A DNA stretch of 35,475 nt from an uncultured SAR86 cluster bacterium (GTDB lineage: Bacteria > Pseudomonadota > Gammaproteobacteria > Magnimaribacterales > Magnimaribacteraceae). Under the pieces are notes generated by a model. That model ran no database searches and was not told the DNA's origin. It saw only the letters and a program-made list of their open reading frames with translations. The DNA is taken from NCBI GenBank assembly GCA_938075195.1, contig CALJGK010000057.1, positions 1 to 35,475 on the forward strand, given 5' to 3'. Below are positions 1,905-11,045 of the stretch, one piece after another. The position numbers and the translations under genes are program-made. Numbering within the stretch: position 1 is the stretch's first letter; each line of letters opens with the position of its first letter.

Positions 1905-3740
1905 ATGTGTGGAATCATAGGTGTTGCGTCAAATAAACCTTCTGTAGACAAGTTACTCATCGGGTTATTGCGTCAAGAATACAGGGGTTACGATTCTGCT
2001 GGCTTAGCCATTTTCGATGAAAAAGAACAAATTCAGGTTTTTAAGAGCACCGGAAAAGTTGCAGAGCTCCAAAATTCAATTGGCTTAAATCCAGTTAATG
2101 GTAATACCGGGATCGCTCATACAAGATGGGCTACGCACGGGCTTCCAACAGAAGCCAACGCTCATCCGCACCACTCTAATAACAAAGTCTTCGTAATTCA
2201 TAATGGAATTATTGAGAACCATCAAGAAATTAGAACCACACTCAAGGCCTTAGGATATGTATTTGAATCAGAAACTGATACAGAGGTTATTGCCCATTTG
2301 ATCCACGCAAAAATGACCGACAGTAATTTGTCTTTGGTTGAATCCTTAAAGGCTGCCGTCAAAGATCTAAGGGGAGCATATGCCATAGGAGCTGTATGTA
2401 AAAGTGAACCAGGCATATTGGCCGCTGCAAGAAAAGGAAGCCCTCTGGTTATAGGTATGGGTTTTGGAGAAAACTTTATTGCCTCGGACCAACTGGCACT
2501 AGCTGATTTTGCAGAAAATTTTGTTTTTTTAGAAGAAGGTGATCTTGCGGAAATTTCAGCAACTGATGTCACATACTGGAATCTTGAAGATAAACAAGTG
2601 GATAGACCGGTAGTTGTTGCTAAATCCCTTGGTGAGACAGTAGATAAGGGTGAGTACCGACATTTCATGTTAAAAGAAATAAACGAACAGCCCGCTAAGA
2701 TTAAAGGGCTTTTGGAGGGTCAGCTGACTGAGTCTGGCGTCCAAGAAGAGATTTTCGGCCCTAACGCACCAGAGATTTTTAAAAATGTAGCAGCTGTTCA
2801 GATCGTCGCTTGTGGTACAAGCTTTCATGCGGGCACCGTAGCAAAATATTGGTTAGAAGGACTTGCAGGCCTGCCCTGTAGCGTTGAAGTAGCCAGTGAA
2901 TTTAGATATAGAAATAAGGTCGTGGCCCCGAATACCTTATTTGTAACCATATCTCAGTCTGGCGAGACGGCAGATACTTTGGCTTGCCTAAGCGCAGCCA
3001 AGGATGCCGGTTACCTTTCACGTCTAGGTATATGTAATGTCCCCTCGAGCTCACTTGCTCGTGAATCAGATTTGGTTTTCTTAACGAAAGCAGGGCCGGA
3101 AATAGGTGTGGCATCCACTAAAGCTTTCACTACTCAACTTGTTGGCTTATTGATGCTCACTCTAATCCTTGGAAGACATCATGGGCTTTCATCTGTAGCC
3201 GAGAACGCGATTAATAATTCATTAAGGGCACTTCCCGATTCTTTGGATGCGGTCATGAAATTAGAAGATCAAATAATAGAAATGGCAGAGGACTTTGATC
3301 AAAAAGAACATGCTCTTTTCTTGGGTCGCGGGATTCATTATCCAGTTGCCATGGAAGGTGCTTTAAAGTTAAAAGAAATATCTTATATTCATGCAGAAGC
3401 TTACCCTGCAGGAGAGCTTAAACATGGCCCATTGGCTTTGGTGGATTCAGAAATGCCTGTTGTGGCCGTAGCTCCAAATGATGATTTATTAGAAAAATTG
3501 CAGTCAAACTTGGAAGAGGTTAGAGCGAGAGGCGGAAAACTTTATGTATTTGGCCATTCAGAAGCACATCATGATGACGAATCCATCACTAAATTTATCG
3601 AACTTCCAGAAGTCCCGGAACTTATTGCTCCACTGATTTATTCTATTCCTCTTCAGCTTCTCGCTTACCATGTAGCAATACTGAAGGGTACAGACATTGA
3701 TCAGCCAAGAAATTTGGCCAAGTCAGTCACAGTTGAATGA
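1905..3740 (+). CDS. glmS: Glutamine-fructose-6-phosphate aminotransferase (isomerizing)
   Basis: GlmS makes glucosamine-6-phosphate from fructose-6-phosphate and glutamine, the first step towards UDP-GlcNAc. The protein begins MCGIIGV, so Cys2 becomes the N-terminal nucleophile of the class II glutamine amidotransferase domain (about residues 1-220). Two SIS sugar-isomerase domains follow, with CGTSFHAG and SQSGETADT in the first. The C-terminus DQPRNLAKSVTVE is canonical. The ATG is 3 nt after glmU. In many bacteria the glmS 3' end is the attTn7 recognition site; here its last 18 bp recur six times downstream. No upstream glmS ribozyme is expected or seen, since the gene abuts glmU. Confidence 0.98.
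   Translation: MCGIIGVASNKPSVDKLLIGLLRQEYRGYDSAGLAIFDEKEQIQVFKSTGKVAELQNSIGLNPVNGNTGIAHTRWATHGLPTEANAHPHHSNNKVFVIHNGIIENHQEIRTTLKALGYVFESETDTEVIAHLIHAKMTDSNLSLVESLKAAVKDLRGAYAIGAVCKSEPGILAAARKGSPLVIGMGFGENFIASDQLALADFAENFVFLEEGDLAEISATDVTYWNLEDKQVDRPVVVAKSLGETVDKGEYRHFMLKEINEQPAKIKGLLEGQLTESGVQEEIFGPNAPEIFKNVAAVQIVACGTSFHAGTVAKYWLEGLAGLPCSVEVASEFRYRNKVVAPNTLFVTISQSGETADTLACLSAAKDAGYLSRLGICNVPSSSLARESDLVFLTKAGPEIGVASTKAFTTQLVGLLMLTLILGRHHGLSSVAENAINNSLRALPDSLDAVMKLEDQIIEMAEDFDQKEHALFLGRGIHYPVAMEGALKLKEISYIHAEAYPAGELKHGPLALVDSEMPVVAVAPNDDLLEKLQSNLEEVRARGGKLYVFGHSEAHHDDESITKFIELPEVPELIAPLIYSIPLQLLAYHVAILKGTDIDQPRNLAKSVTVE
3723..3740 (+). repeat. glmS-terminus core repeat R1 (original site)
   Basis: The sequence tcagtcacagttgaatga is the end of glmS itself, encoding S-V-T-V-E-stop. 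It is the reference copy for the six degenerate downstream copies in the same orientation, and the left boundary of the first cassette. Confidence 0.85.
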
Positions 3741-4086
3741 ATTTGGGTGTTACCCTTTATGGGAAGTTTCTTCTCACTTAGAATTTACAATTACTCTCTC
3801 ATCCAACGATTTAATCCCAGATCGTAAATTCTCCAAGAAACAAGAACTTTTATACCAACTCATCAGGTATCTTCATGAGGAAAAGGGTTTAGGTTATAGG
3901 AAAATCTCATACAAACTCAATTCCTGGGGAATCAAAACTCCAAGAGGTAAGAAGTGGTTCAACACATCAGTTCATTCTGTTTTGAAAAGAAGAAACCAAA
4001 GAAATAATCGTATTGAGAAACAAAGAAATCAAAGATATCCAATTGAGATTGGAACATTAAAACTTAACCACCAACCCATGGATTGA
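3733..4086 (+). CDS. Recombinase-domain-like HTH protein, probably 5'-truncated at the glmS junction
   Basis: The open frame runs out of the glmS 3' end and has no ATG except two codons before its stop, so its start is unclear. The TTG at 3733 is a placeholder giving 117 aa; a TTG at 3697, deeper in glmS, is also in frame. The middle reads LGYRKISYKLNSWGIKTPRG followed by KKWFNTSVHSVLKRR. This resembles the first DNA-binding part of the 'Recombinase' domain of large serine recombinases (LN..GI.TPRG..W....V...L.R). The catalytic resolvase domain with its serine is absent. It may be a fragment cut by the insertion junction or a stand-alone DNA-binding protein. It is the only hint of a recombination gene in the array. 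Confidence 0.5.
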   Translation: MNEFGCYPLWEVSSHLEFTITLSSNDLIPDRKFSKKQELLYQLIRYLHEEKGLGYRKISYKLNSWGIKTPRGKKWFNTSVHSVLKRRNQRNNRIEKQRNQRYPIEIGTLKLNHQPMD

Positions 4087-4096
4087 AAAGATAGAA

Positions 4097-4102
4097 TATA
4101 AT
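4097..4102 (+). promoter_or_regulatory. Candidate -10 box (TATAAT) 6 nt before an ATG
   Basis: A perfect TATAAT is followed by cagaga and then the ATG at 4109, with no Shine-Dalgarno sequence. Transcription from this box would begin at or next to the start codon, giving a leaderless mRNA. I see no convincing -35 element 17 nt upstream. Confidence 0.4.
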
Positions 4103-4108
4103 CAGAGA

Positions 4109-4477
4109 ATGACCATTAAAGATAGTTTTGGATTAGAAACAAATTCAGTTCTCTGGAGATTAAATGTTCTTTTACAAAATGGTTATTCTGTCGATTTAAG
4201 TAACGGTAGGGTTTATTATCGTGAGACTGACTCTTTTGAAGAAGGAGGACCTTATGAATTCGTAAGTTTGATTCATACATTTAAAAGAGAACTAAACTTA
4301 TTCCTGAATCCAGATGGAATGATTGTTCAACAGAGAATGATACCGTTAGGTGAAAAAGATCCTAATGAAATAAGAATTCATGAAGAAGAACATGAGAAAT
4401 TTGTAAAATTCGTTAGTGAATTACCAAAAGTAAGGTTTTACCACAAAATATTTTCTTTCTATCTGAGATTGAGATAG
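4109..4477 (+). CDS. Hypothetical protein (122 aa)
   Basis: I do not recognise a family. The protein is soluble-looking: an N-terminal part (LWRLNVLLQNGYSVDLSNGR), a mixed middle, and an acidic stretch around IRIHEEEHEKF near residue 95, ending in an aromatic and basic tail (FYHKIFSFYLRLR). It has no signal peptide or membrane segment. Its stop codon abuts the ATG of the next gene, so the two are probably co-translated. A TATAAT lies 6 nt before the start. Long open frame, tight packing and + strand collinearity support a real gene. Confidence 0.7.
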   Translation: MTIKDSFGLETNSVLWRLNVLLQNGYSVDLSNGRVYYRETDSFEEGGPYEFVSLIHTFKRELNLFLNPDGMIVQQRMIPLGEKDPNEIRIHEEEHEKFVKFVSELPKVRFYHKIFSFYLRLR

Positions 4478-5338
4478 ATGAGTCTACTGACCAAAATTAA
4501 AACACTTTTTCTAAAGAATAAAGATAAAGAAGTTGTTTCTTCGAGTGAAGATATAAAACCACGATGGGATCAAAACCCTTCTGAGTTAGAAGTAATCCCA
4601 GATGGTGAATATCTTTATTTAGATGAAGAAGAAGAAAGTTTTATTAGACAAAACTACAAGAACGGGAAACTTCATGGACCCTCTTGTTTCCATTATGTTT
4701 CAGGAGAGTTGTGGATAGAAACAAACTTTAAAGACGGATTAGAACACGGAACCTTAACCTACTATGAGAAGGACGGTTCCATTATAAGAACTGAAACTTG
4801 GGAAAATGGTGAGTGTATTTCTACCAACAAACCTGAAAAAACCAATCAACCTGAAAGAAGTGTAAAAAAGAGTTTTAGAGACGATGATTTTGATAAGTTA
4901 ATGTTGTTTGATGAGAATGTTGATGGAGTAGAGTGTTTTGGTTACTTCTTTCATTCCAAAAAATATGACGACTATAGTTTTGGGGTTTATGAAATATATC
5001 TCAGTGATGAATTTAGAACAGAAATTAGTTTAAAACTTAAACCCTCAGAATTTTTAGAACAAGATGTTGATTTAGAACACTTTAAATCATACCTACATAC
5101 TAATATTGAAAAGGGTCAATATGACTTTAGTGAACCGAGAAAGATTTGGGAGAAATACACTTGTAGATATCAATCTAAAGTGGATGAAACCGGTACCTAT
5201 GTACCCAAATACACCGAAGAGGAGTTAACAAAAATAGAACAAGAAGAATATTTAACACCCATAGAATGGACAACACGTTTTTGTAACTGGAAAGAGTTAA
5301 AACAACGTAAGTTTAAAGTTCAGACCTATGATGATTAA
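4478..5338 (+). CDS. MORN-repeat (YwqK-like) protein, 286 aa
   Basis: Residues about 45-105 hold MORN-like units (YKNGKLHG, FKDGLEHG, then a weaker WENGE unit), the pattern found in YwqK-family proteins, often annotated as toxin-antitoxin 'antitoxins', and in other surface or scaffold proteins. The acidic N-terminal stretch includes DEEEES. The C-terminal region, about 130-286, is charged and unrecognised. No signal peptide is visible. The ATG follows the previous stop with no gap, and the gene ends with codons for Asp-Asp-stop just before the next start. The molecular role is unknown; the MORN call itself is fairly safe. Confidence 0.7.
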   Translation: MSLLTKIKTLFLKNKDKEVVSSSEDIKPRWDQNPSELEVIPDGEYLYLDEEEESFIRQNYKNGKLHGPSCFHYVSGELWIETNFKDGLEHGTLTYYEKDGSIIRTETWENGECISTNKPEKTNQPERSVKKSFRDDDFDKLMLFDENVDGVECFGYFFHSKKYDDYSFGVYEIYLSDEFRTEISLKLKPSEFLEQDVDLEHFKSYLHTNIEKGQYDFSEPRKIWEKYTCRYQSKVDETGTYVPKYTEEELTKIEQEEYLTPIEWTTRFCNWKELKQRKFKVQTYDD

Positions 5339-5352
5339 ATTGAGTATGAATA
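5330..5352 (+). repeat. Gene-junction repeat, copy A
   Basis: The 23 bp spanning the Asp-Asp-stop end of one gene and the ATG of the next recur at 7396-7418 with one difference (22 of 23 match). Key parts are gatgattaaat, then gag, then tatgaata. It includes TTAAAT 5 nt before the ATG at 5346, a possible -10 element or coupling signal. Confidence 0.6.
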
Positions 5353-5750
5353 AAATATCGATGTCATTTTTTATCTTTCTATCAATTCTAAGTTTTTCTG
5401 TTTTTTCTGAAACAAAAACACTGTATTTTTCTTGTGATACCTTGTCATTAAGTAAAGACTATATTGAAGTTCAAACATTTCAAAAAGGTGAAAGAATAAG
5501 AGGACTAGAAATTAATCGAAGTAAAGATAAGGTGGTATTCGACGGGAATGAGATGGATTTCGTAGAGGATTACAATAATGACAATATATACGAACTAGGT
5601 ACAAGTGGTACATCTCAATACAGAGACTATGATTTTCATAGGATAACCGGAAGATTGGATGAAAAATTAGTTTATACGGAACCAGACGGAGAAATTATCT
5701 TTACGTATGATTATGAGTATCAATGTTATAAGACCGAACCTTTATTCTAA
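5346..5750 (+). CDS. Hypothetical secreted protein (134 aa)
   Basis: The first 22 residues form a signal peptide: MNK, a hydrophobic core (FFIFLSILSFSVF), and a likely cleavage after FSE or nearby. The mature part has two cysteines, in YFSCD and YQCY, which could form a disulfide in the periplasm. It is rich in Asp, Tyr and Glu. I recognise no family. I chose the ATG at 5346 rather than the ATG at 5328, because 5328 overlaps the upstream gene and puts charged residues before the signal peptide. The junction repeat at 5330-5352 covers this start. Confidence 0.65.
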   Translation: MNKISMSFFIFLSILSFSVFSETKTLYFSCDTLSLSKDYIEVQTFQKGERIRGLEINRSKDKVVFDGNEMDFVEDYNNDNIYELGTSGTSQYRDYDFHRITGRLDEKLVYTEPDGEIIFTYDYEYQCYKTEPLF

Positions 5751-5768
5751 ACTCTCATTACTAAACCT

Positions 5769-5774
5769 GATAAT
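5769..5774 (+). promoter_or_regulatory. Candidate -10 box (GATAAT) 9 nt before an ATG
   Basis: GATAAT inside ctgataatct precedes the ATG at 5784 by 9 nt. The same ten-base string occurs before the next gene at 6084-6093. There is no Shine-Dalgarno sequence and no clear -35 element. Confidence 0.35.
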
Positions 5775-5783
5775 CTAGTTAGT

Positions 5784-6056
5784 ATGAAAAAAATTATTAT
5801 TTCAATAAGTTCTCTTTTTCTTTTAGTTTCATGTTCTATTGAAGACAAAGATGAATTAACTAGTTTTGTAGAATCAAGTAATAGTCAAAAGGATTCAGTC
5901 TGGATGGAACAAGAAGATAGGATTACTTCAGGTGAATGGTACAAAGTATTATTGGTTTTTGGTTGGATAGATGATGGGATTGAATGTGAAAGAATTGTTC
6001 AACAGTACAAGGAAACTTACCCCGAGATAAACTATCGATGTAATCCAGTTAAATAA
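5784..6056 (+). CDS. Small putative lipoprotein (90 aa)
   Basis: The N-terminus MKKIIISISSLFLLVSCSIE is a lipoprotein signal peptide with lipobox LVSC, placing the acyl-modified Cys at residue 17. The mature protein is short and acidic, with two further cysteines (GIECERI and NYRCNP) that may pair. No family recognised. It lies in the + strand run of cassette 1 with a 33-nt gap from the upstream gene that holds the GATAAT box. Confidence 0.7.
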   Translation: MKKIIISISSLFLLVSCSIEDKDELTSFVESSNSQKDSVWMEQEDRITSGEWYKVLLVFGWIDDGIECERIVQQYKETYPEINYRCNPVK

Positions 6057-6085
6057 TATTTTTCGTAATAGTTTTCACTGAATCT

Positions 6086-6091
6086 GATAAT
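6086..6091 (+). promoter_or_regulatory. Candidate -10 box (GATAAT) 8 nt before an ATG
   Basis: GATAAT, again inside ctgataatct, lies 8 nt before the ATG at 6100. TTTCGT at 6061-6066 is at best a weak -35 element. No Shine-Dalgarno sequence is present, as before several genes of this cassette. Confidence 0.35.
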
Positions 6092-6099
6092 CTCAACCT

Positions 6100-7083
6100 A
6101 TGAGTGATAAAGATTACCCCGAAAAACTCAAACTTTTCAAAGAAGAAGGTTCAAGAAACCAAGACTATTATTTCATCATTGTAGATGAACAAGGGGAGAC
6201 ACTATCTACTAAAAAATGGTACCCAATAAGAGAATATGGTTCTTTAGTAATCTCATTATCCTCTCTCTCATTTAATACACACTTTCGACAAGAAGTTGAA
6301 AAATTCCTTACTGTAAAACAGGAAAACACATTAGATAGTCTTGAGTTCATCTCTGGAGAAGGGTTTTTAGAAGAAGGAACAGTTAACTCTAGAGGTACAC
6401 CATCACTTTCAATTTTTGGAAGTTCTCACAAACAAAAAACATTAAGTGTGAACATACGACCAAGAGGAGATGACGGAGAAGAATACTTTACTCTTGGAGG
6501 AATAAGAGGTGATGTAGGTGTGGATATAAATAACGAAGAAGAATTTTTTCTTGAATTCAATTTAACTAACGAAAGATTTAAGGAGTTGAAAGAGATTTGT
6601 TTAGGTGGAGGATTAGAAAGAATTCGTATCAGGACTACTTTAACAAAAGTTAATGGTCTCTATTCTGAGTGGTCAGAATATATAGGAACTGAATTTGGAG
6701 AAATAAAGATTTTTAATAACGACAGAGACATCATAAACAAAGAAGAATTCGATGAAAAATTATTAGAATCCGTTTCAATGAGAAATGGTTTTGGACAAGT
6801 TTTCTCGATAATGACAGAAAAAAAAGTAGGTAACTTTGATCTGACAGAAACAGGATTTGAAAGAGAACAACGTGAAATGGAAGAATTCATTAGTGATCAC
6901 GATGATGATAAAAGTTATGAAGATGATGATCATCATGAAGAGAGTTTAATGAAAGAAAGAATGGAAGAAGTAAGAACAAATCAAGAGAGATTTATAGAAG
7001 AACAAAAACTCTCAACACTAGTGAGTATTTTTTGGGGAATGATAATTCTTGGATCTCTTCTTATATTAACTCTCTGGTTGTAA
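6100..7083 (+). CDS. Hypothetical tail-anchored protein (327 aa)
   Basis: No family recognised. The first 200 residues look like a soluble beta-rich domain (GGIRGDVGVDINNEEEFFLE, then RIRIRTTLTKV). Residues about 265-300 are strongly acidic and His/Asp-rich (SDHDDDKSYEDDDHHEES), followed by a charged helix. A single hydrophobic segment close to the end (SIFWGMIILGSLLILTLWL) would anchor it in the inner membrane with the bulk in the cytoplasm. There is no signal peptide. The Asp/His cluster could bind metal, but that is speculation. Confidence 0.7.
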   Translation: MSDKDYPEKLKLFKEEGSRNQDYYFIIVDEQGETLSTKKWYPIREYGSLVISLSSLSFNTHFRQEVEKFLTVKQENTLDSLEFISGEGFLEEGTVNSRGTPSLSIFGSSHKQKTLSVNIRPRGDDGEEYFTLGGIRGDVGVDINNEEEFFLEFNLTNERFKELKEICLGGGLERIRIRTTLTKVNGLYSEWSEYIGTEFGEIKIFNNDRDIINKEEFDEKLLESVSMRNGFGQVFSIMTEKKVGNFDLTETGFEREQREMEEFISDHDDDKSYEDDDHHEESLMKERMEEVRTNQERFIEEQKLSTLVSIFWGMIILGSLLILTLWL

Positions 7084-7104
7084 CTATACGAATTCAGATT
7101 CTAA

Positions 7105-7404
7105 ATGGAAAAACTAGAAAAAATATTATTAAAGATCAAAGAAGATAATATTGTTTGTCCTGAACCAGGTCGTTGGAGTGTTTTTTACAAAAGAATTGGT
7201 GGGTTTGAAGAAAAAGGTGATGACTATGATCATCGAAGACACTTCCCTCTCATACTCAATGGTTGGTTCCCTTCGAGTAAGGAAGATAAACACAAAAGAT
7301 TTATAGATTCAGTTGACTATTTTTATTCAAAATATCCAAATAAGAGGAATTTCATTGAGAGTTTTTTTGAAAAAAATAATAAATGGTATAGATGGGATGA
7401 TTAA
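7105..7404 (+). CDS. Hypothetical protein (99 aa)
   Basis: A small soluble protein, rich in aromatic and basic residues (RWSVFYKRIGG, RRHFPLILNGWFPS, NNKWYRWDD). No signal or membrane segment, and no family recognised. It ends with Asp-Asp-stop in the second copy of the junction repeat (7396-7418), directly before the next gene, so the two are probably coupled. It follows the 327-aa gene after 21 nt. Confidence 0.6.
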   Translation: MEKLEKILLKIKEDNIVCPEPGRWSVFYKRIGGFEEKGDDYDHRRHFPLILNGWFPSSKEDKHKRFIDSVDYFYSKYPNKRNFIESFFEKNNKWYRWDD

Positions 7405-7418
7405 ATCGAGTATGAATA
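7396..7418 (+). repeat. Gene-junction repeat, copy B
   Basis: This is the second copy of the 23-bp junction at 5330-5352, with 22 of 23 identical. It covers the Asp-Asp-stop of the 99-aa gene and the ATG at 7412, with TTAAAT 5 nt before that ATG. Confidence 0.6.
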
Positions 7419-7684
7419 TGACACTGAATGATTTGTTTATCAAAATAAAAGAATTCTTTATTTCATTGATCAATACTCCTATCCAAGAAATCATTTTATT
7501 TATTGTTGTTATATTTGGTGGTTTATTTCTATTAGTTTATTTTTTTGATAGATTCGATAGATACTTTAGTGGACCAGAAGGAAGTAGAAGATTTTTGAAG
7601 TTTGGAAAATGGTTCCTTATCGTCTTAATAAGTTTTACAATTTTAATTTGGATCTTGGTTGGAATAAGGGAACTATTCTCATGA
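7412..7684 (+). CDS. Small membrane protein (90 aa, two TM segments)
   Basis: Two hydrophobic helices are visible: EIILFIVVIFGGLFLLVYFF and WFLIVLISFTILIWILVGI, joined by a charged loop containing DRYFSGPEGSRR. The N-terminus (MNMTLNDLFIKIKEFF) is amphipathic. No family recognised. The start at 7412 was chosen because it sits at the same place in the junction repeat as the start at 5346; a longer frame upstream overlaps the previous gene. It is the last substantial gene of cassette 1. Confidence 0.6.
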   Translation: MNMTLNDLFIKIKEFFISLINTPIQEIILFIVVIFGGLFLLVYFFDRFDRYFSGPEGSRRFLKFGKWFLIVLISFTILIWILVGIRELFS

Positions 7685-7712
7685 AGAAGAAAACAGTTAC
7701 ACCCAAAAACAA

Positions 7713-7730
7713 TCAGTCACTGTGGAGTAA
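7713..7730 (+). repeat. glmS-terminus core repeat R2
   Basis: tcagtcactgtggagtaa reads S-V-T-V-E-stop in one frame and matches the glmS end at 14 of 18 positions. It contains the small palindrome CAGTcACTG. It is the right boundary of cassette 1. Confidence 0.75.
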
Positions 7731-7760
7731 TTCACAACAGTAAATTAACAGGAGATAATT

Positions 7761-7880
7761 ATGGAAATAAATTTTTACATTTGGTTAATTCTGACGATTG
7801 CGGTGACAGCATATTCTTGGATTTTGATCGCAAAATGGGCAAAGAAAAAAGATACGAAACAACAATCCCTCGAAAACTAA
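7761..7880 (+). CDS. Single-TM small protein (39 aa)
   Basis: A short gene with a good Shine-Dalgarno sequence (aggag at 7750-7754) before the ATG. The product starts MEINFYIWLILTIAVTAYSW: one membrane helix with a basic tail (AKWAKKKDTKQQSLEN) that should face the cytoplasm. No family recognised. It is the only gene of its cassette. The ribosome binding site, helix-plus-basic-tail design and exact fit between the terminal repeats support translation. Confidence 0.6.
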   Translation: MEINFYIWLILTIAVTAYSWILIAKWAKKKDTKQQSLEN

Positions 7881-7898
7881 TTGACTGTTGTAAAACAC

Positions 7899-7916
7899 TC
7901 AGTAACTGTGGAGTGG
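7899..7916 (+). repeat. glmS-terminus core repeat R3
   Basis: tcagtaactgtggagtgg reads S-V-T-V-E-Trp, so the stop codon position has become TGG. It contains the palindrome CAGTaACTG. With R4 it shares flanks on both sides (aaaacac before, a T-rich trinucleotide after). Confidence 0.7.
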
Positions 7917-7925
7917 ATTTGAATC

Positions 7926-8111
7926 GTGATTAAAAAATTAACTCTCAAAAAAATGATGTTTTACCTTAATTTAGGGTGTGTGCTATTTTTAATTGGATAC
8001 GGTATCAACGATTACATTTCCGGTAAATCATTAGGTGGCGATTATTGGGGAACATTAATAATACTAATAGCAATTTTGCCAGGCACGCTGCACATCCAAA
8101 ATAAAGGGTGA
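7926..8111 (+). CDS. Two-TM small membrane protein (61 aa)
   Basis: Two helices are visible: MMFYLNLGCVLFLIGYGI and WGTLIILIAILPGTLHI, separated by a short loop (NDYISGKSLGGDY). The start is taken as GTG 7926, which lies in the left arm of the cassette repeat; ATG 7953 is the alternative and would still keep both helices. No clear Shine-Dalgarno sequence precedes either. No family recognised with confidence. Confidence 0.5.
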   Translation: MIKKLTLKKMMFYLNLGCVLFLIGYGINDYISGKSLGGDYWGTLIILIAILPGTLHIQNKG

Positions 8112-8135
8112 AATTAAATCACTGCTCGAAAACAC

Positions 8136-8153
8136 CCAGTAACAGTAGAGTGG
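8136..8153 (+). repeat. glmS-terminus core repeat R4
   Basis: ccagtaacagtagagtgg reads P-V-T-V-E-Trp. It is the closest relative of R3 and lies 31 nt before the start of the amine oxidase gene. Confidence 0.65.
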
Positions 8154-8173
8154 TTTATAGTCATTATTCAGTT

Positions 8174-8178
8174 GGAGG
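8174..8178 (+). promoter_or_regulatory. Shine-Dalgarno sequence that selects an ATT start
   Basis: GGAGG is followed by six T residues and then ATT at 8185 in the reading frame of the amine oxidase. No ATG, GTG or TTG lies in frame at a suitable distance, so this site decides the start. Confidence 0.65.
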
Positions 8179-8184
8179 TTTTTT

Positions 8185-9600
8185 ATTAAGATTTTTATAA
8201 AAGTTCTATTTGCATATATTTTGCTGCAACCTTTTTATGCTTTTTCTGAAAGCGAAGGCTTAAAAATACTGGTTGTTGGAGCAGGAATATCAGGACTGGG
8301 CGTGGCAAGAGATTTACAAGACTCAGGTTATAAAGTAACTGTTCTTGAGGCTAGAAATAAAATTGGTGGAAGAATAGACACAGACAGATCTTTAGGATTT
8401 CCATTGGAAAGAGGAGCAAACTGGATTCATAGCAATCAGGTAGAGGGCAATTTACTCATGTCTCTGAAAGATGAGTTGGGCTTAAAAACAAATATCAGCA
8501 CATTAGATACATCGGACTTCAAATTATTCAACAAAGAAGGAAAAGTCGTAACATTATCAGAAGAGGACATTGAAAAAATTGAATTCAGGGTAGGGCTTGC
8601 TGCTTACATTGCTTCATACGTCAAGCCATCTTCGACTTTAGGGGATGTTATAGGTTTATTAAAAAGCCTGGGCTTATTATCATTTGCTCCAGATGTTGTT
8701 CTTAAGGCATTTCTCCAGCAGCTAGAGTTAGGAGCCGCAGAAGATGAAGAAAATATACCTGTTAGTGCTTTAATATCTGAATACGCATACATGGAGGATG
8801 CTGGAGATGATGAAGAGGTTTTCGGCGGCTTTGATCAATTTACCAATCATTTATCTAAGGGCCTTGATATAAAGCTGAACAGCCCTGTTTCTAAAATTAA
8901 TTATTTATCTGACAAGATAGAGGTTTTTGCAAATGACAAAGCCTATATGGCTGATGTAGTGGTTATAAGTGTTTCTCTTGGCGTTTTACAAAAAAACCTT
9001 ATTGAGTTTATCCCTGATTTGCCGGTGGAAAAGAAGGAAGCCATTAATAGCATAAGCTGGGGAAGCGTAAATAAAGTTATATTTAAATTTCCATATAACT
9101 TCTGGGGCAATGTGGAAAACTTTTTTATAGAGAGGGAGGACAGGCATGCCTTCACCACCTGGTTTAGCAGTGAGGTAATGGTAAATGAGCCAGTAGTTTA
9201 TTCTTTCTTTTCTGGAGAGTTCTCAAGAAATATGGAAAAAGAAACAGATGATTATATTCTAGAAGAGGCTATGAAATCGTTAAAAGTAGCTTATGGTAAT
9301 GATATTCCTGAACCAGAAGCACATTTAATTTCGCGGTGGGGAATGGAGCCATACATACTAGGATCTTACTCGGCTCCTGGGCACAATCAAGACGACTTAA
9401 AATTGCGAACCGAATTAGCCAGCCCAGTTCAAAATAAAATATTTTTTGCCGGCGAGGCAACAAGCGTCCTAGAGTATGCCTTTACTCATGGTGCTTTAAA
9501 CACAGGGCTAAGAGAAGCCAAAAAAATTAAAGAATTGTATCCATTGGACCAACAGTCTTACCCAGTAACGGCTATAAACAACTCCGTAACCGTGAAGTAA
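8185..9600 (+). CDS. Exported flavin-containing amine oxidase, ATT start
   Basis: A FAD-dependent amine oxidase of the polyamine oxidase / LSD1-like family, expected to oxidise an amine to an aldehyde with H2O2. The dinucleotide motif VVGAGISGLGVARDL and the following LEARNKIGGRIDT are present, as is the C-terminal FAD motif FAGEATSVLEYAFTHGALN. With the ATT at 8185 as start (471 aa) the N-terminus becomes a good signal peptide: KIFIKVLFAYILLQPFYAF. Starting at TTG 8221 would cut the signal in half and lose the GGAGG site. The last residues (AINNSVTVK) are encoded by the array repeat. The substrate is unknown. Confidence 0.85.
   Translation: MKIFIKVLFAYILLQPFYAFSESEGLKILVVGAGISGLGVARDLQDSGYKVTVLEARNKIGGRIDTDRSLGFPLERGANWIHSNQVEGNLLMSLKDELGLKTNISTLDTSDFKLFNKEGKVVTLSEEDIEKIEFRVGLAAYIASYVKPSSTLGDVIGLLKSLGLLSFAPDVVLKAFLQQLELGAAEDEENIPVSALISEYAYMEDAGDDEEVFGGFDQFTNHLSKGLDIKLNSPVSKINYLSDKIEVFANDKAYMADVVVISVSLGVLQKNLIEFIPDLPVEKKEAINSISWGSVNKVIFKFPYNFWGNVENFFIEREDRHAFTTWFSSEVMVNEPVVYSFFSGEFSRNMEKETDDYILEEAMKSLKVAYGNDIPEPEAHLISRWGMEPYILGSYSAPGHNQDDLKLRTELASPVQNKIFFAGEATSVLEYAFTHGALNTGLREAKKIKELYPLDQQSYPVTAINNSVTVK
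9583..9600 (+). repeat. glmS-terminus core repeat R5
   Basis: tccgtaaccgtgaagtaa reads S-V-T-V-K-stop and forms the end of the amine oxidase gene in the same reading phase that glmS uses. A partial extra unit, P-V-T-A, lies 21 nt upstream (9562-9573). Confidence 0.7.
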
Positions 9601-9706
9601 TTCCTCAGCTCATTATTTCTTAAAACGCTATAAATAAAGGGTTGTGATTTCTATTTATTCTGAGATTATAGTAAATTAAATTAAATTCATTTTTCAGGGA
9701 AAGATT

Positions 9707-10087
9707 ATGATAAAAAAAGAATCCTTTTTTTTAGTATTTGTAGCTATTGGTGTATTTTCTGTTTCTTTGGGATACGGATTTTTACCAAGCCTTACAATGC
9801 CTTTTTTGTACGATATAGAAGTAACTAATACAAATTTATTAAATATTTTAAGAGCAATTTCAGGTTTATATATAGCCTTAGTAATTTTTTGGATATCAGG
9901 TGCATATAACTCTAATCTCCAATTACCTGCCCTATGGAGTTTAACAATCTTCATGGCCGGAATAGCCTCAGGAAGGGTTGCAAGCATCTTAATTGACGGT
10001 TTACCTAGTCCAATCTTTATTTTTTATCTATTTACAGAAATTATTTTCGGCTTAATAGGTTACGCGCTTTTGAAGAGGAAATTATGA
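9707..10087 (+). CDS. DUF4345-like membrane protein (126 aa)
   Basis: Four hydrophobic segments are visible. The layout matches my knowledge of the DUF4345 family: an N-terminal helix with GYGFLPSLTMP, a middle LRAISGLYIALVIFWISGA, then GRVASILIDGLPSPIFIFY with the conserved Arg and Asp-Gly-x-Pro. Function in the family is unknown. A ggga Shine-Dalgarno sequence sits upstream of the ATG. It is followed 64 nt later by a small ferredoxin-fold gene. Confidence 0.7.
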   Translation: MIKKESFFLVFVAIGVFSVSLGYGFLPSLTMPFLYDIEVTNTNLLNILRAISGLYIALVIFWISGAYNSNLQLPALWSLTIFMAGIASGRVASILIDGLPSPIFIFYLFTEIIFGLIGYALLKRKL

Positions 10088-10151
10088 AGCTTCTATTTAA
10101 TCAGCATCAGTAAAATGGCTCACAATAGAAAATTAAAAAGGAGAAGATATA

Positions 10152-10421
10152 ATGCTAATAGCAATAAGAGCAGAAGTAGAAAGTGTTGATCATTGGAGAG
10201 AAAAATTTAAAACACATGCAGATTTATTTAAGAGCCAGGGTGTGTCTTTTGCTTATATGGGCGCAGCAAATGATAAAACAGTAATTTCTGTTTTTGAAAC
10301 TAACAATCCTGACGAGTTCGTAAGAATATTTAATGATCCTGCAACAGCGGAAGCAATGTCACAAGATAAAATAACAGGCGGTGTTGAGATGTTTCTTCTA
10401 GATGAGATATTCAAATTATAA
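10152..10421 (+). CDS. Small alpha/beta-barrel protein (ABM / DUF3764-like), 89 aa
   Basis: The pattern MLIAIRAEVESVDHWREKF, then AYMGAANDKTVISVFETNNPDEFVRIFNDPATAEAM in short strands and helices, is that of dimeric ferredoxin-fold proteins such as antibiotic-biosynthesis monooxygenases and DUF3764. No catalytic residue can be assigned. The gene has a strong Shine-Dalgarno sequence (aaggaga) ending 8 nt before the ATG. The family-level call is moderate and the function unknown. Confidence 0.6.
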   Translation: MLIAIRAEVESVDHWREKFKTHADLFKSQGVSFAYMGAANDKTVISVFETNNPDEFVRIFNDPATAEAMSQDKITGGVEMFLLDEIFKL

Positions 10422-10444
10422 ATTCTTGGTTGGGCTAAGTATCC

Positions 10445-10462
10445 TCTGTTACGGGAGAGTAG
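10445..10462 (+). repeat. glmS-terminus core repeat R6 (diverged)
   Basis: tctgttacgggagagtag reads S-V-T-G-E-stop. It matches the consensus tcagtaactgtggagtaa at 12 of 18 positions. It is accepted because of its orientation, coding phase and spacing to a weak inverted-repeat arm, but chance cannot be excluded. Confidence 0.45.
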
Positions 10463-10905: not shown

Positions 10906-11027
10906 TGAATTAATAATCACAGAATAGTTTAAAGAAAAGGGATTTAGAAAGAGAGTGGGTAAATGAGAGTCTGGCTTGCTCTACATACAAAATAAATCAT
11001 AAGATTTAATTCTCTATTTTGTTAAAG

Positions 11028-11045
11028 TCAGTGGCTGTAGAATAA
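11028..11045 (+). repeat. glmS-terminus core repeat R7 (distal end)
   Basis: tcagtggctgtagaataa, preceded by aag, reads K-S-V-A-V-E-stop and matches the glmS end at 16 of 21 positions including the aag. It is not the end of any gene. It shares the preceding aag with glmS itself rather than with R2-R4, as expected if it is the displaced original end of the target. Confidence 0.65.

What the first reader, a model, noticed from the sequence alone, without database searches (positions are those of the whole stretch)
3742..10441. Each cassette carries its own inverted repeat at its two ends, next to the core
Inverted-repeat arms differ between cassettes but pair within one: 3742-3753 with 7696-7707 (11 of 12), 7734-7747 with 7878-7891 (13 of 14), 7915-7932 with 8116-8133 (11 of 18), 8153-8168 with 9564-9579 (13 of 16), and weakly 9602-9612 with 10431-10441 (8 of 11). 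The arms lie within a few nt of the cores. If a cassette were a circle, the core would sit in the loop between two complementary arms, like a recombinase core site or a folded integron attC. Private arms mean either different recombinases or recognition of structure rather than sequence.
Basis: seen in the sequence. Interest (0 to 1): 0.88.

Follow-up and report, generated by a model that had tools for sequence, protein, structure and literature searches.

The report
Serine-recombinase gene cassettes stacked behind glmS
In a very common group of ocean bacteria, small mobile gene cassettes pile up one after another at the end of one essential gene, and the mirror-image DNA tags at each cassette's two ends look like the docking half-sites of a serine recombinase, which makes this an integron-like gene-capture site apparently built with a different enzyme.

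Summary
The window holds glmS of a SAR86-order gammaproteobacterium followed by six cassettes. Each is bounded by copies of the glmS 3' end (S-V-T-V-E-stop, variable at wobble positions). In 390 cassettes behind 120 of 141 glmS genes of the order, the two ends of a cassette match each other far beyond chance (258 non-redundant; permutation z = 36), while arms across one core do not. The arms have a fixed dyad axis at a nearly invariant AC; homologous cassettes in new contexts place the crossover there. The private stretch peaks 16-26 bp from the axis, where the published zinc-domain motif (16-24) of a serine-integrase attP lies. One array carries a 551-aa large serine recombinase in a 6-kb element; 12 recombinase-less cassettes share its arm family. 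"Private" arms form about 20 families shared by unrelated cargo, and arm mismatches are not of the wobble kind, so several sequence specificities explain them better than folding. Best reading: attP half-sites of trans-mobilised cassettes, like staphylococcal cassette chromosomes and Dehalococcoides ssrA islands but with tiny units. No circle or recombinase activity was shown; recombinases for most arm families are missing.

The parts
1905..3740 (+). glmS; its last codons (S-V-T-V-E-stop) form the first core and the inferred attB
   Evidence: Pfam SIS and GATase domains; lies behind an ATP-synthase epsilon gene and a glmU-like gene
3721..3740 (+). core 1 (glmS end); inferred crossover dinucleotide AC at 3729-3730
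3730..7719 (+). cassette 1 (3990 bp): small PF07508-HTH protein (3736-4086) and several ORFs without strong family matches
   Evidence: in L042 (same genus) glmS is followed directly by cassette 2, so this unit looks inserted between them
3740..3757 (+). cassette 1 left arm (+11 to +28 from the dyad axis)
   Evidence: score 11 with its right arm; member of the 19-cassette arm family
7692..7709 (-). cassette 1 right arm
7711..7730 (+). core 2; AC at 7719-7720
7720..7905 (+). cassette 2 (186 bp), one 39-codon ORF at 7761-7880 (read by eye)
   Evidence: interior 97-100% identical in three other genomes, one of them in another family, where the glmS 3' ends match only 74-78% over the aligned stretch
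7730..7747 (+). cassette 2 left arm
   Evidence: score 13; member of the 71-cassette arm family
7878..7895 (-). cassette 2 right arm
7897..7916 (+). core 3; AC at 7905-7906
7906..8142 (+). cassette 3 (237 bp)
   Evidence: arms 7916-7933 / 8115-8132 not above chance
8134..8153 (+). core 4; AC at 8142-8143
8143..9589 (+). cassette 4 (1447 bp), flavin amine oxidase (8221-9600)
   Evidence: relative in L054
8153..8170 (+). cassette 4 left arm
   Evidence: score 10, p < 0.004
9562..9579 (-). cassette 4 right arm
9581..9600 (+). core 5; AC at 9589-9590
9590..10451 (+). cassette 5 (862 bp): DUF4345 protein (9707-10087) and an 89-aa ORF; arms not paired
10443..10462 (+). core 6; AC at 10451-10452
11026..11045 (+). 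core 7, last of the array; centre reads GC instead of AC (decayed)

Best explanation
The region is a tandem array of mobile gene cassettes inserted one after another at the 3' end of glmS by large serine recombinases (LSRs). Each cassette starts and ends with one half of an attP site: a half-core matching the glmS end plus a private arm of about 18 bp that is probably the LSR's zinc-domain motif. In an excised circle the halves would join into a dyad-symmetric attP (arm - ANTC NGTNA|CNGTN GARTAR - arm'). The LSR would pair it with attB (the glmS end), cut at the central AC and integrate the cassette next to glmS; the new left half-core restores the V-E-stop codons and the old cores move outward. 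Most cassettes carry no recombinase and would be moved in trans by LSRs that recognise their arm family. Shown here: the arrays, the arms and their statistics, the fixed dyad axis, the crossover position inferred from linkage, one LSR-bearing element in an array with matching arms, sharing of near-identical cassettes across genera and families. Inferred: that the LSR acts at these sites, that circles exist, that cassettes are moved in trans, and how they pass between cells.
For: (1) Core scan over 141 loci: 553 forward against 19 reverse hits at score 4, 525 against 8 at score 8; 390 cassettes, median 608 bp. (2) Arms pair within cassettes, z = 36. (3) One dyad axis at A|C: 141 of 150 cassettes scoring 10 or more, and 96 of 98 scoring 14 or more, lie at zero shift. 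(4) Linkage in homologous cassettes with different neighbours: wobble positions -2, 1 and 4 travel with the right end (0.78, 0.72, 0.77), positions 7, 10, 13 and 16 with the left end (0.47, 0.44, 0.75, 0.73); right-end linkage falls to 0.10 at position 7 (35 and 24 clusters). The two bases between, A5 and C6, are A in 104 of 106 and C in 102 of 106 downstream cores of the first 41 loci. A short crossover on the dyad axis is what a serine recombinase needs. (5) Within-cassette identity is 0.85-0.92 at +16 to +24, lower at +13 to +15 (0.69-0.77), and back to background beyond about +30; the LI integrase attP has its zinc-domain motif at 16-24 (passages of PMC3783163). (6) A 551-aa LSR (Resolvase + Recombinase, weaker Zn_ribbon_recom) lies in the 6047-bp cassette next to glmS in L151, with matched arms; the public record of that contig names a SAR86 genome. 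Its arm family has 13 members; tblastn of this LSR against all array DNA finds no other LSR. [quoted passage not shown] (8) In 43 of 46 nested differences the extra cassettes lie directly behind glmS.
Against: Only one LSR was found in 141 arrays, and only 3 LSRs and 2 small resolvases (plus one fragment) in 203 genomes of the order; the largest arm families (71 and 19 cassettes) have no known recombinase. 124 of 258 non-redundant cassettes do not reach the arm score of 9. Within arm families the two arms of one cassette still match better than arms of different members (z 17.4, 7.8, 4.3), finer than a handful of specificities would need. Positions 7 and 10 follow the left end only at 0.47 and 0.44, so the crossover is not razor-sharp. 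Typical LSR attP and attB sites share little beyond the centre (recalled), whereas here they share an 18-bp core. No circle and no phage or plasmid with such an attP was found.
Confidence: 0.78

Rival explanations
1. A tyrosine recombinase (integrase or XerC/XerD) moves the cassettes; the arms are its inverted core-binding sites.
For: XerC/XerD-type genes are in nearly all genomes (59 of 61 have PF00589); tyrosine integrases often use gene 3' ends (recalled).
Against: No PF00589 match lies in or near a glmS array in the 61 genomes searched (places compared by eye with glmS places). An overlap of 6-8 bp centred on the axis would put positions 4 and 7 both inside it and blur both, but 4 follows the right end (0.77 against 0.19) and 7 the left (0.47 against 0.10). 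The inverted private arms start about 11 bp from the axis, outside a usual 11-13 bp half-site (recalled).
Confidence: 0.1
2. The circle junction folds into a hairpin (single strand or cruciform) and a recombinase recognises the structure, as IntI does with attC; the core is the loop.
For: Arms covary finely even within a family: 239 shared non-consensus bases against 91 expected; two window circle junctions fold better than most shuffles (7 and 4 of 200 as good).
Against: Arm mismatches are 37% transitions (of 425) against 65% in cassette interiors (of 512), so G-T-compatible changes are not favoured; identical arm motifs recur in unrelated cassettes (85 of 134); no integron integrase nearby.
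Confidence: 0.08
3. A Tn7-like or casposon-like transposition system targets glmS and duplicates the core as a target-site duplication.
For: Tn7 uses the glmS end (recalled); cores are glmS-end copies.
Against: Half-cores travel with cassette ends, unlike fresh target duplications; no Cas1 above cut-off in 202 genomes, one broken sub-threshold match; no TniQ in 202 genomes, but that search's controls were silent too, so it is inconclusive.
Confidence: 0.02
4. Chance or dead sequence: arms are by-products of A+T-rich DNA and the array is no longer mobile.
For: Half of the window's cassettes have unpaired arms.
Against: z = 36; 97-100% identical cassettes beside glmS ends that are 74-78% identical; 20 non-order glmS loci have one strong core each plus 3 weak hits, against 97 cores in 20 order loci.
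Confidence: 0.02

Closest known systems
Staphylococcal and enterococcal cassette chromosomes (SCC, ECC; CcrA/CcrB/CcrC at the rlmH 3' end)
   Same: 3'-end gene target, large serine recombinase, inverted repeats in the circle site, several att copies in a row (passages of PMC6222049). The L151 LSR scores best in NCBIfam with the CcrB model, then XisF, CcrA and CcrC.
   Different: Target is glmS; units are 83 bp to about 8 kb with median 608 bp instead of 21-78 kb for ECC; most units lack a recombinase; many arm families share one core; LSR scores 80.8 bits against a CcrB cut-off of 900.
Dehalococcoides ssrA genomic islands (DsiB serine recombinase)
   Same: Tandem islands behind one essential gene bounded by 20-bp copies of its end; a CcrB-like recombinase; 15 islands without an integration module, suggested to be mobilised otherwise (passages of PMC3146451).
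   Different: Target is an RNA gene; units are large; no private inverted arms are mentioned (the word 'inverted' does not occur in the held text).
Integron gene cassettes (IntI/attC)
   Same: Arrays of small, mostly single-gene units, mostly one orientation (509 of 580 ORFs of 60 aa or more read away from glmS), new units near one fixed end.
   Different: No IntI; palindrome formed by both ends of a unit instead of one attC; crossover on a dyad axis; sequence-specific arm families.
Tn7 at attTn7 (glmS end)
   Same: Same target gene and codons (recalled).
   Different: Tn7 inserts downstream of the stop and leaves no copy of the glmS end at its far side (recalled); here each unit carries half-cores.

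Membership tests
Large serine recombinase integrative elements | Recombinase with N-terminal resolvase domain, recombinase domain and zinc ribbon | tested here: met
   L151 LSR: PF00239 6e-24, PF07508 1e-11, PF13408 3e-4 (below its curated cut-off); found in 1 of 141 arrays
Large serine recombinase integrative elements | Short crossover at the centre of a dyad-symmetric attP | tested here: met
   Dyad axis and linkage breakpoint coincide at AC; by comparison of sequences only
Large serine recombinase integrative elements | Zinc-domain motif about 16-24 bp from the centre in attP | tested here: met
   Private identity peak at +16 to +26 against PMC3783163; position only, no binding shown
Large serine recombinase integrative elements | Recombinase catalyses attP x attB | not testable with these tools
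   needs an assay
SCC cassette chromosomes | Insertion in rlmH | tested here: not met
   glmS
SCC cassette chromosomes | ccr recombinase genes at curated score | tested here: not met
   80.8 bits against 900 for CcrB, 60.3 against 700 for CcrA, 45.2 against 900 for CcrC
Integron | IntI-type tyrosine recombinase beside the array | tested here: not met
   No PF00589 match beside glmS in 61 genomes
Integron | attC imperfect palindrome at one end of each cassette | tested here: not met
   Complementarity is between the two ends of a cassette
Tn7-like transposon | TnsD/TniQ target selector | tested here: inconclusive
   0 of 202, control genomes also silent
Casposon | Cas1 integrase | tested here: not met
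   0 of 202 above cut-off; control positive in 9 of 14

The most novel reading that the evidence does not exclude
A serine-recombinase counterpart of the integron: a lineage-wide gene-capture site in SAR86 where hundreds of different small, mostly single-gene cassettes, with arm tags that select among several orthogonal recombinases, share one wobble-tolerant docking core on an essential gene and are moved in trans and exchanged between genera.
Probability: 0.6. Interest if true: 0.9.

Novelty: new variant of a known kind. Interest (0 to 1): 0.82.

Why it matters
SAR86 is among the most abundant surface-ocean bacteria (recalled) and uncultured with streamlined genomes; how it gains genes is an open question. 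A site present in 120 of 141 examined genomes, holding restriction-modification and other cargo and carrying near-identical cassettes across families, would be a main gate for gene exchange. Natural arm families on one shared core would also give a set of candidate orthogonal serine-integrase sites for testing.

Tried and rejected
Tyrosine integrase near glmS: none in 61 genomes. Free attP in viral contigs: the exact core pattern gave 45 stretches; none has palindromic arms (best score 8), and none of 10 candidate stretches encodes a relative of the L151 LSR. Relatives of that LSR in genome contigs: only its own contig. The LSRs of G041 and G044 are not beside a convincing core; the best hits near them score 6.0 and 5.1. 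The small resolvases of G074 and G061 sit beside integrase-like ORFs near a guaA-like gene (by eye) and have no core; not followed. Taxonomic extent: an exact-pattern count in 369 class and 398 phylum genomes has low power, since it sees only 1 of the 7 window cores; only G550 showed two copies within 1 kb, with unpaired arms. The better control was 20 glmS loci of other gammaproteobacteria: 1 strong core each, 3 weak extras, against 97 in 20 order loci. My first core scan (3 mismatches) made false chains in L040, L043, L055, L056 and L070; I replaced it by a weight matrix, whose threshold of 7 still gives 534 forward and 11 reverse hits; missed cores merge some cassettes. Literature: and 70 of the held open-access library (search listings) found no report of glmS cassette arrays in SAR86; subscription papers and preprints were not searched.
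Full report
WHAT WAS CHECKED. The window carries an ATP-synthase epsilon gene, a glmU-like gene and glmS, then a row of cassettes. The 'core' between cassettes is a copy of the last codons of glmS: TCN GTN ACN GTN GAR TAR, i.e. S-V-T-V-E-stop. Seven copies lie on the + strand of the window (0 of 100 shuffles had as many).

THE SAME ARRAY IN THE ORDER. I searched glmS in 61 relatives and in all 203 held genomes of the order and fetched the DNA behind glmS from 140 other genomes, of the 154 of 203 with a match. One of them (G169) is named by its public contig as SAR86 cluster AH-326-D05; I call the group the SAR86 order on that basis. A weight matrix for the core found 525 forward and 8 reverse hits at score 8 in 1.89 Mb. 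At threshold 7, 140 of 141 loci have the glmS core and 120 have at least two cores, giving 390 cassettes (median 608 bp) in 258 clusters of unrelated cargo. Loci with one core include contigs that end soon after glmS, so they are not proof of empty sites. In 20 glmS loci of other Gammaproteobacteria the same matrix finds the glmS core and three weak hits; in 20 order loci of the same length it finds 97.

THE ARMS. For 258 non-redundant cassettes, the first 28 bases after the core match the reverse complement of the last 28 bases before the next core with mean score 10.36, against 6.12 for ends of different cassettes (z = 36, none of 5000 permutations close); arms that face each other across one core do not match (6.14). 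In the window it is significant for cassettes 1, 2 and 4, not for 3, 5 and 6.

GEOMETRY. Joining right end and left end as a circle, the two arms are symmetric about one axis, between A and C of GTN-AC-NGT. Of 98 cassettes with score 14 or more, 96 have exactly this axis. Going outward, the first 10 bp are common to all cassettes (the glmS-like part, symmetric only at GA.T), and +11 to +28 are private, with identity near 0.9 over most of +16 to +26 (0.79 at +25). The crystal structure of a serine integrase on attP places the zinc-domain motif at 16-24, with recombinase-domain contacts nearer the centre (passages of PMC3783163).

WHERE THE CROSSOVER IS. Homologous cassettes in different neighbourhoods show which core bases travel with which end. 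Wobble positions -2, 1 and 4 travel with the right end (excess identity 0.78, 0.72, 0.77), positions 7, 10, 13 and 16 with the left end (0.47, 0.44, 0.75, 0.73); 95% intervals at 4 and 7 do not overlap for the right end (0.55-0.93 against -0.13-0.34; an earlier unbootstrapped run is). Only A5 and C6 lie between. This fits a two-base crossover AC on the dyad axis. It also explains why the glmS end stays functional: the incoming left half supplies NGTN GAR TAR. The right half-core never becomes coding under this scheme yet keeps the codon-like pattern, so I infer that the recombinase tolerates wobble positions of its glmS target.

THE RECOMBINASE. Among 203 genomes PF00239 finds three large serine recombinases, two small resolvases and a fragment. 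One LSR lies inside a glmS array: L151, first cassette, 6047 bp, with a small ORF at the left end that looks HTH-like by eye (no Pfam match), a REP_ORF2-G2P-like protein, a weak RHH-like protein and the 551-aa LSR ending shortly before the next core. Its arms (GTTTAGTCGGTCTTTC / GTTTAATCGGTCTTTC) match each other and those of, for example, L062 cassette 2 and L158 cassette 2; its arm family has 13 members. tblastn of this LSR against all array DNA hits only itself. Its closest solved relatives are YokA of SPbeta and TP901-1 integrase; its best NCBIfam model is CcrB, far below cut-off.

WHY SEQUENCE RECOGNITION RATHER THAN FOLDING. The 134 paired cassettes form 20 arm families by single linkage (71, 19, 13, 5, 4, 4, 3, 2, 2, and 11 singles), and 85 share an identical left-arm 9-mer with an unrelated cassette. 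Mismatches between the two arms are 37% transitions, against 65% between homologous cassette interiors. Against this reading, arms of one cassette match better than arms of the same family (z 17.4, 7.8, 4.3), with 239 shared non-consensus bases against 91 expected in the largest family. That may mean many sub-specificities, or homogenisation of the two ends; I cannot tell which.

MOBILITY AND POLARITY. The interior of window cassette 2 (186 bp) is 98.8%, 100% and 97% identical in three other genomes whose glmS 3' ends match the window's at 78%, 78% and 74% (the last over only 80 aligned nt). In L042 it directly follows glmS; in the window cassette 1 lies between. In 46 nested differences, 43 extra blocks sit directly behind glmS (the criterion favours this case because glmS is in every locus). 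Of 550 locus pairs sharing a cassette cluster, 100 share the last and 32 the first; of 51 pairs sharing two or more, 26 keep the same order. Arm pairing and core quality fall slightly with distance from glmS (rho -0.17, p 0.0007; rho -0.16, p 0.002). All this fits insertion next to glmS and decay outward.

CARGO. Of 580 ORFs of 60 aa or more inside arrays, 509 read away from glmS; downstream of arrays 1545 of 1943 do too, so this bias is only modestly higher. Of 60 of the longest distinct cassette proteins scanned (214 distinct families of 110 aa or more were available), several are DNA methylases, HNH nucleases and restriction subunits, besides metabolic enzymes.

VERDICT. The arms are best read as the outer half-sites of serine-recombinase attP sites. 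The mechanism is known from SCC/ECC and proposed for Dehalococcoides ssrA islands; the miniature, mostly recombinase-less, many-tagged cassettes and the glmS site in SAR86 are, as far as the searches listed show, undescribed.

Noticed in passing
window 3736-4086; also L037, L041, L059, L073, L085, L091, L096, L111, L141, L158, L164, L166: Small proteins (about 64-136 aa) carrying only the helix-turn-helix part of the serine-recombinase 'Recombinase' domain; 14 members in 13 loci, 12 of them inside arrays, often the first ORF of a cassette. Possibly directionality or competitor factors.
   Followed up: partly
L151:13084-13545 (- strand): REP_ORF2-G2P-like replication protein in the LSR-bearing element, hinting at rolling-circle replication or transfer of the excised form.
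   Followed up: no
L055, L058, L060, L061, L062, L063, L072, L073, L074 (rows): A second class of ends that is not palindromic: left ends like AAGAAAGGTTTCTCGGTTGG and right ends whose reverse complement is like ATCCATAACCAAATTAT, each recurring in several cassettes.
   Followed up: no
window 11026-11045: The outermost core has GC in place of the nearly invariant AC at the centre, as if dead.
   Followed up: no
window 7761-7880: A 186-bp cassette whose only ORF encodes a 39-residue hydrophobic peptide and is spread almost unchanged between genomes.
   Followed up: partly
L236 (G550) 929-948 and 1909-1928: A genome outside the order has two glmS-end copies 980 bp apart; arms there do not pair.
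   Followed up: partly
L040, L042, L043, L044 (440-bp cassette): Homologous cassettes whose left arms differ; in L043 and L044 the left arm resembles its own right arm while L040 and L042 carry a common arm type there, suggesting that arms can be exchanged.
   Followed up: no
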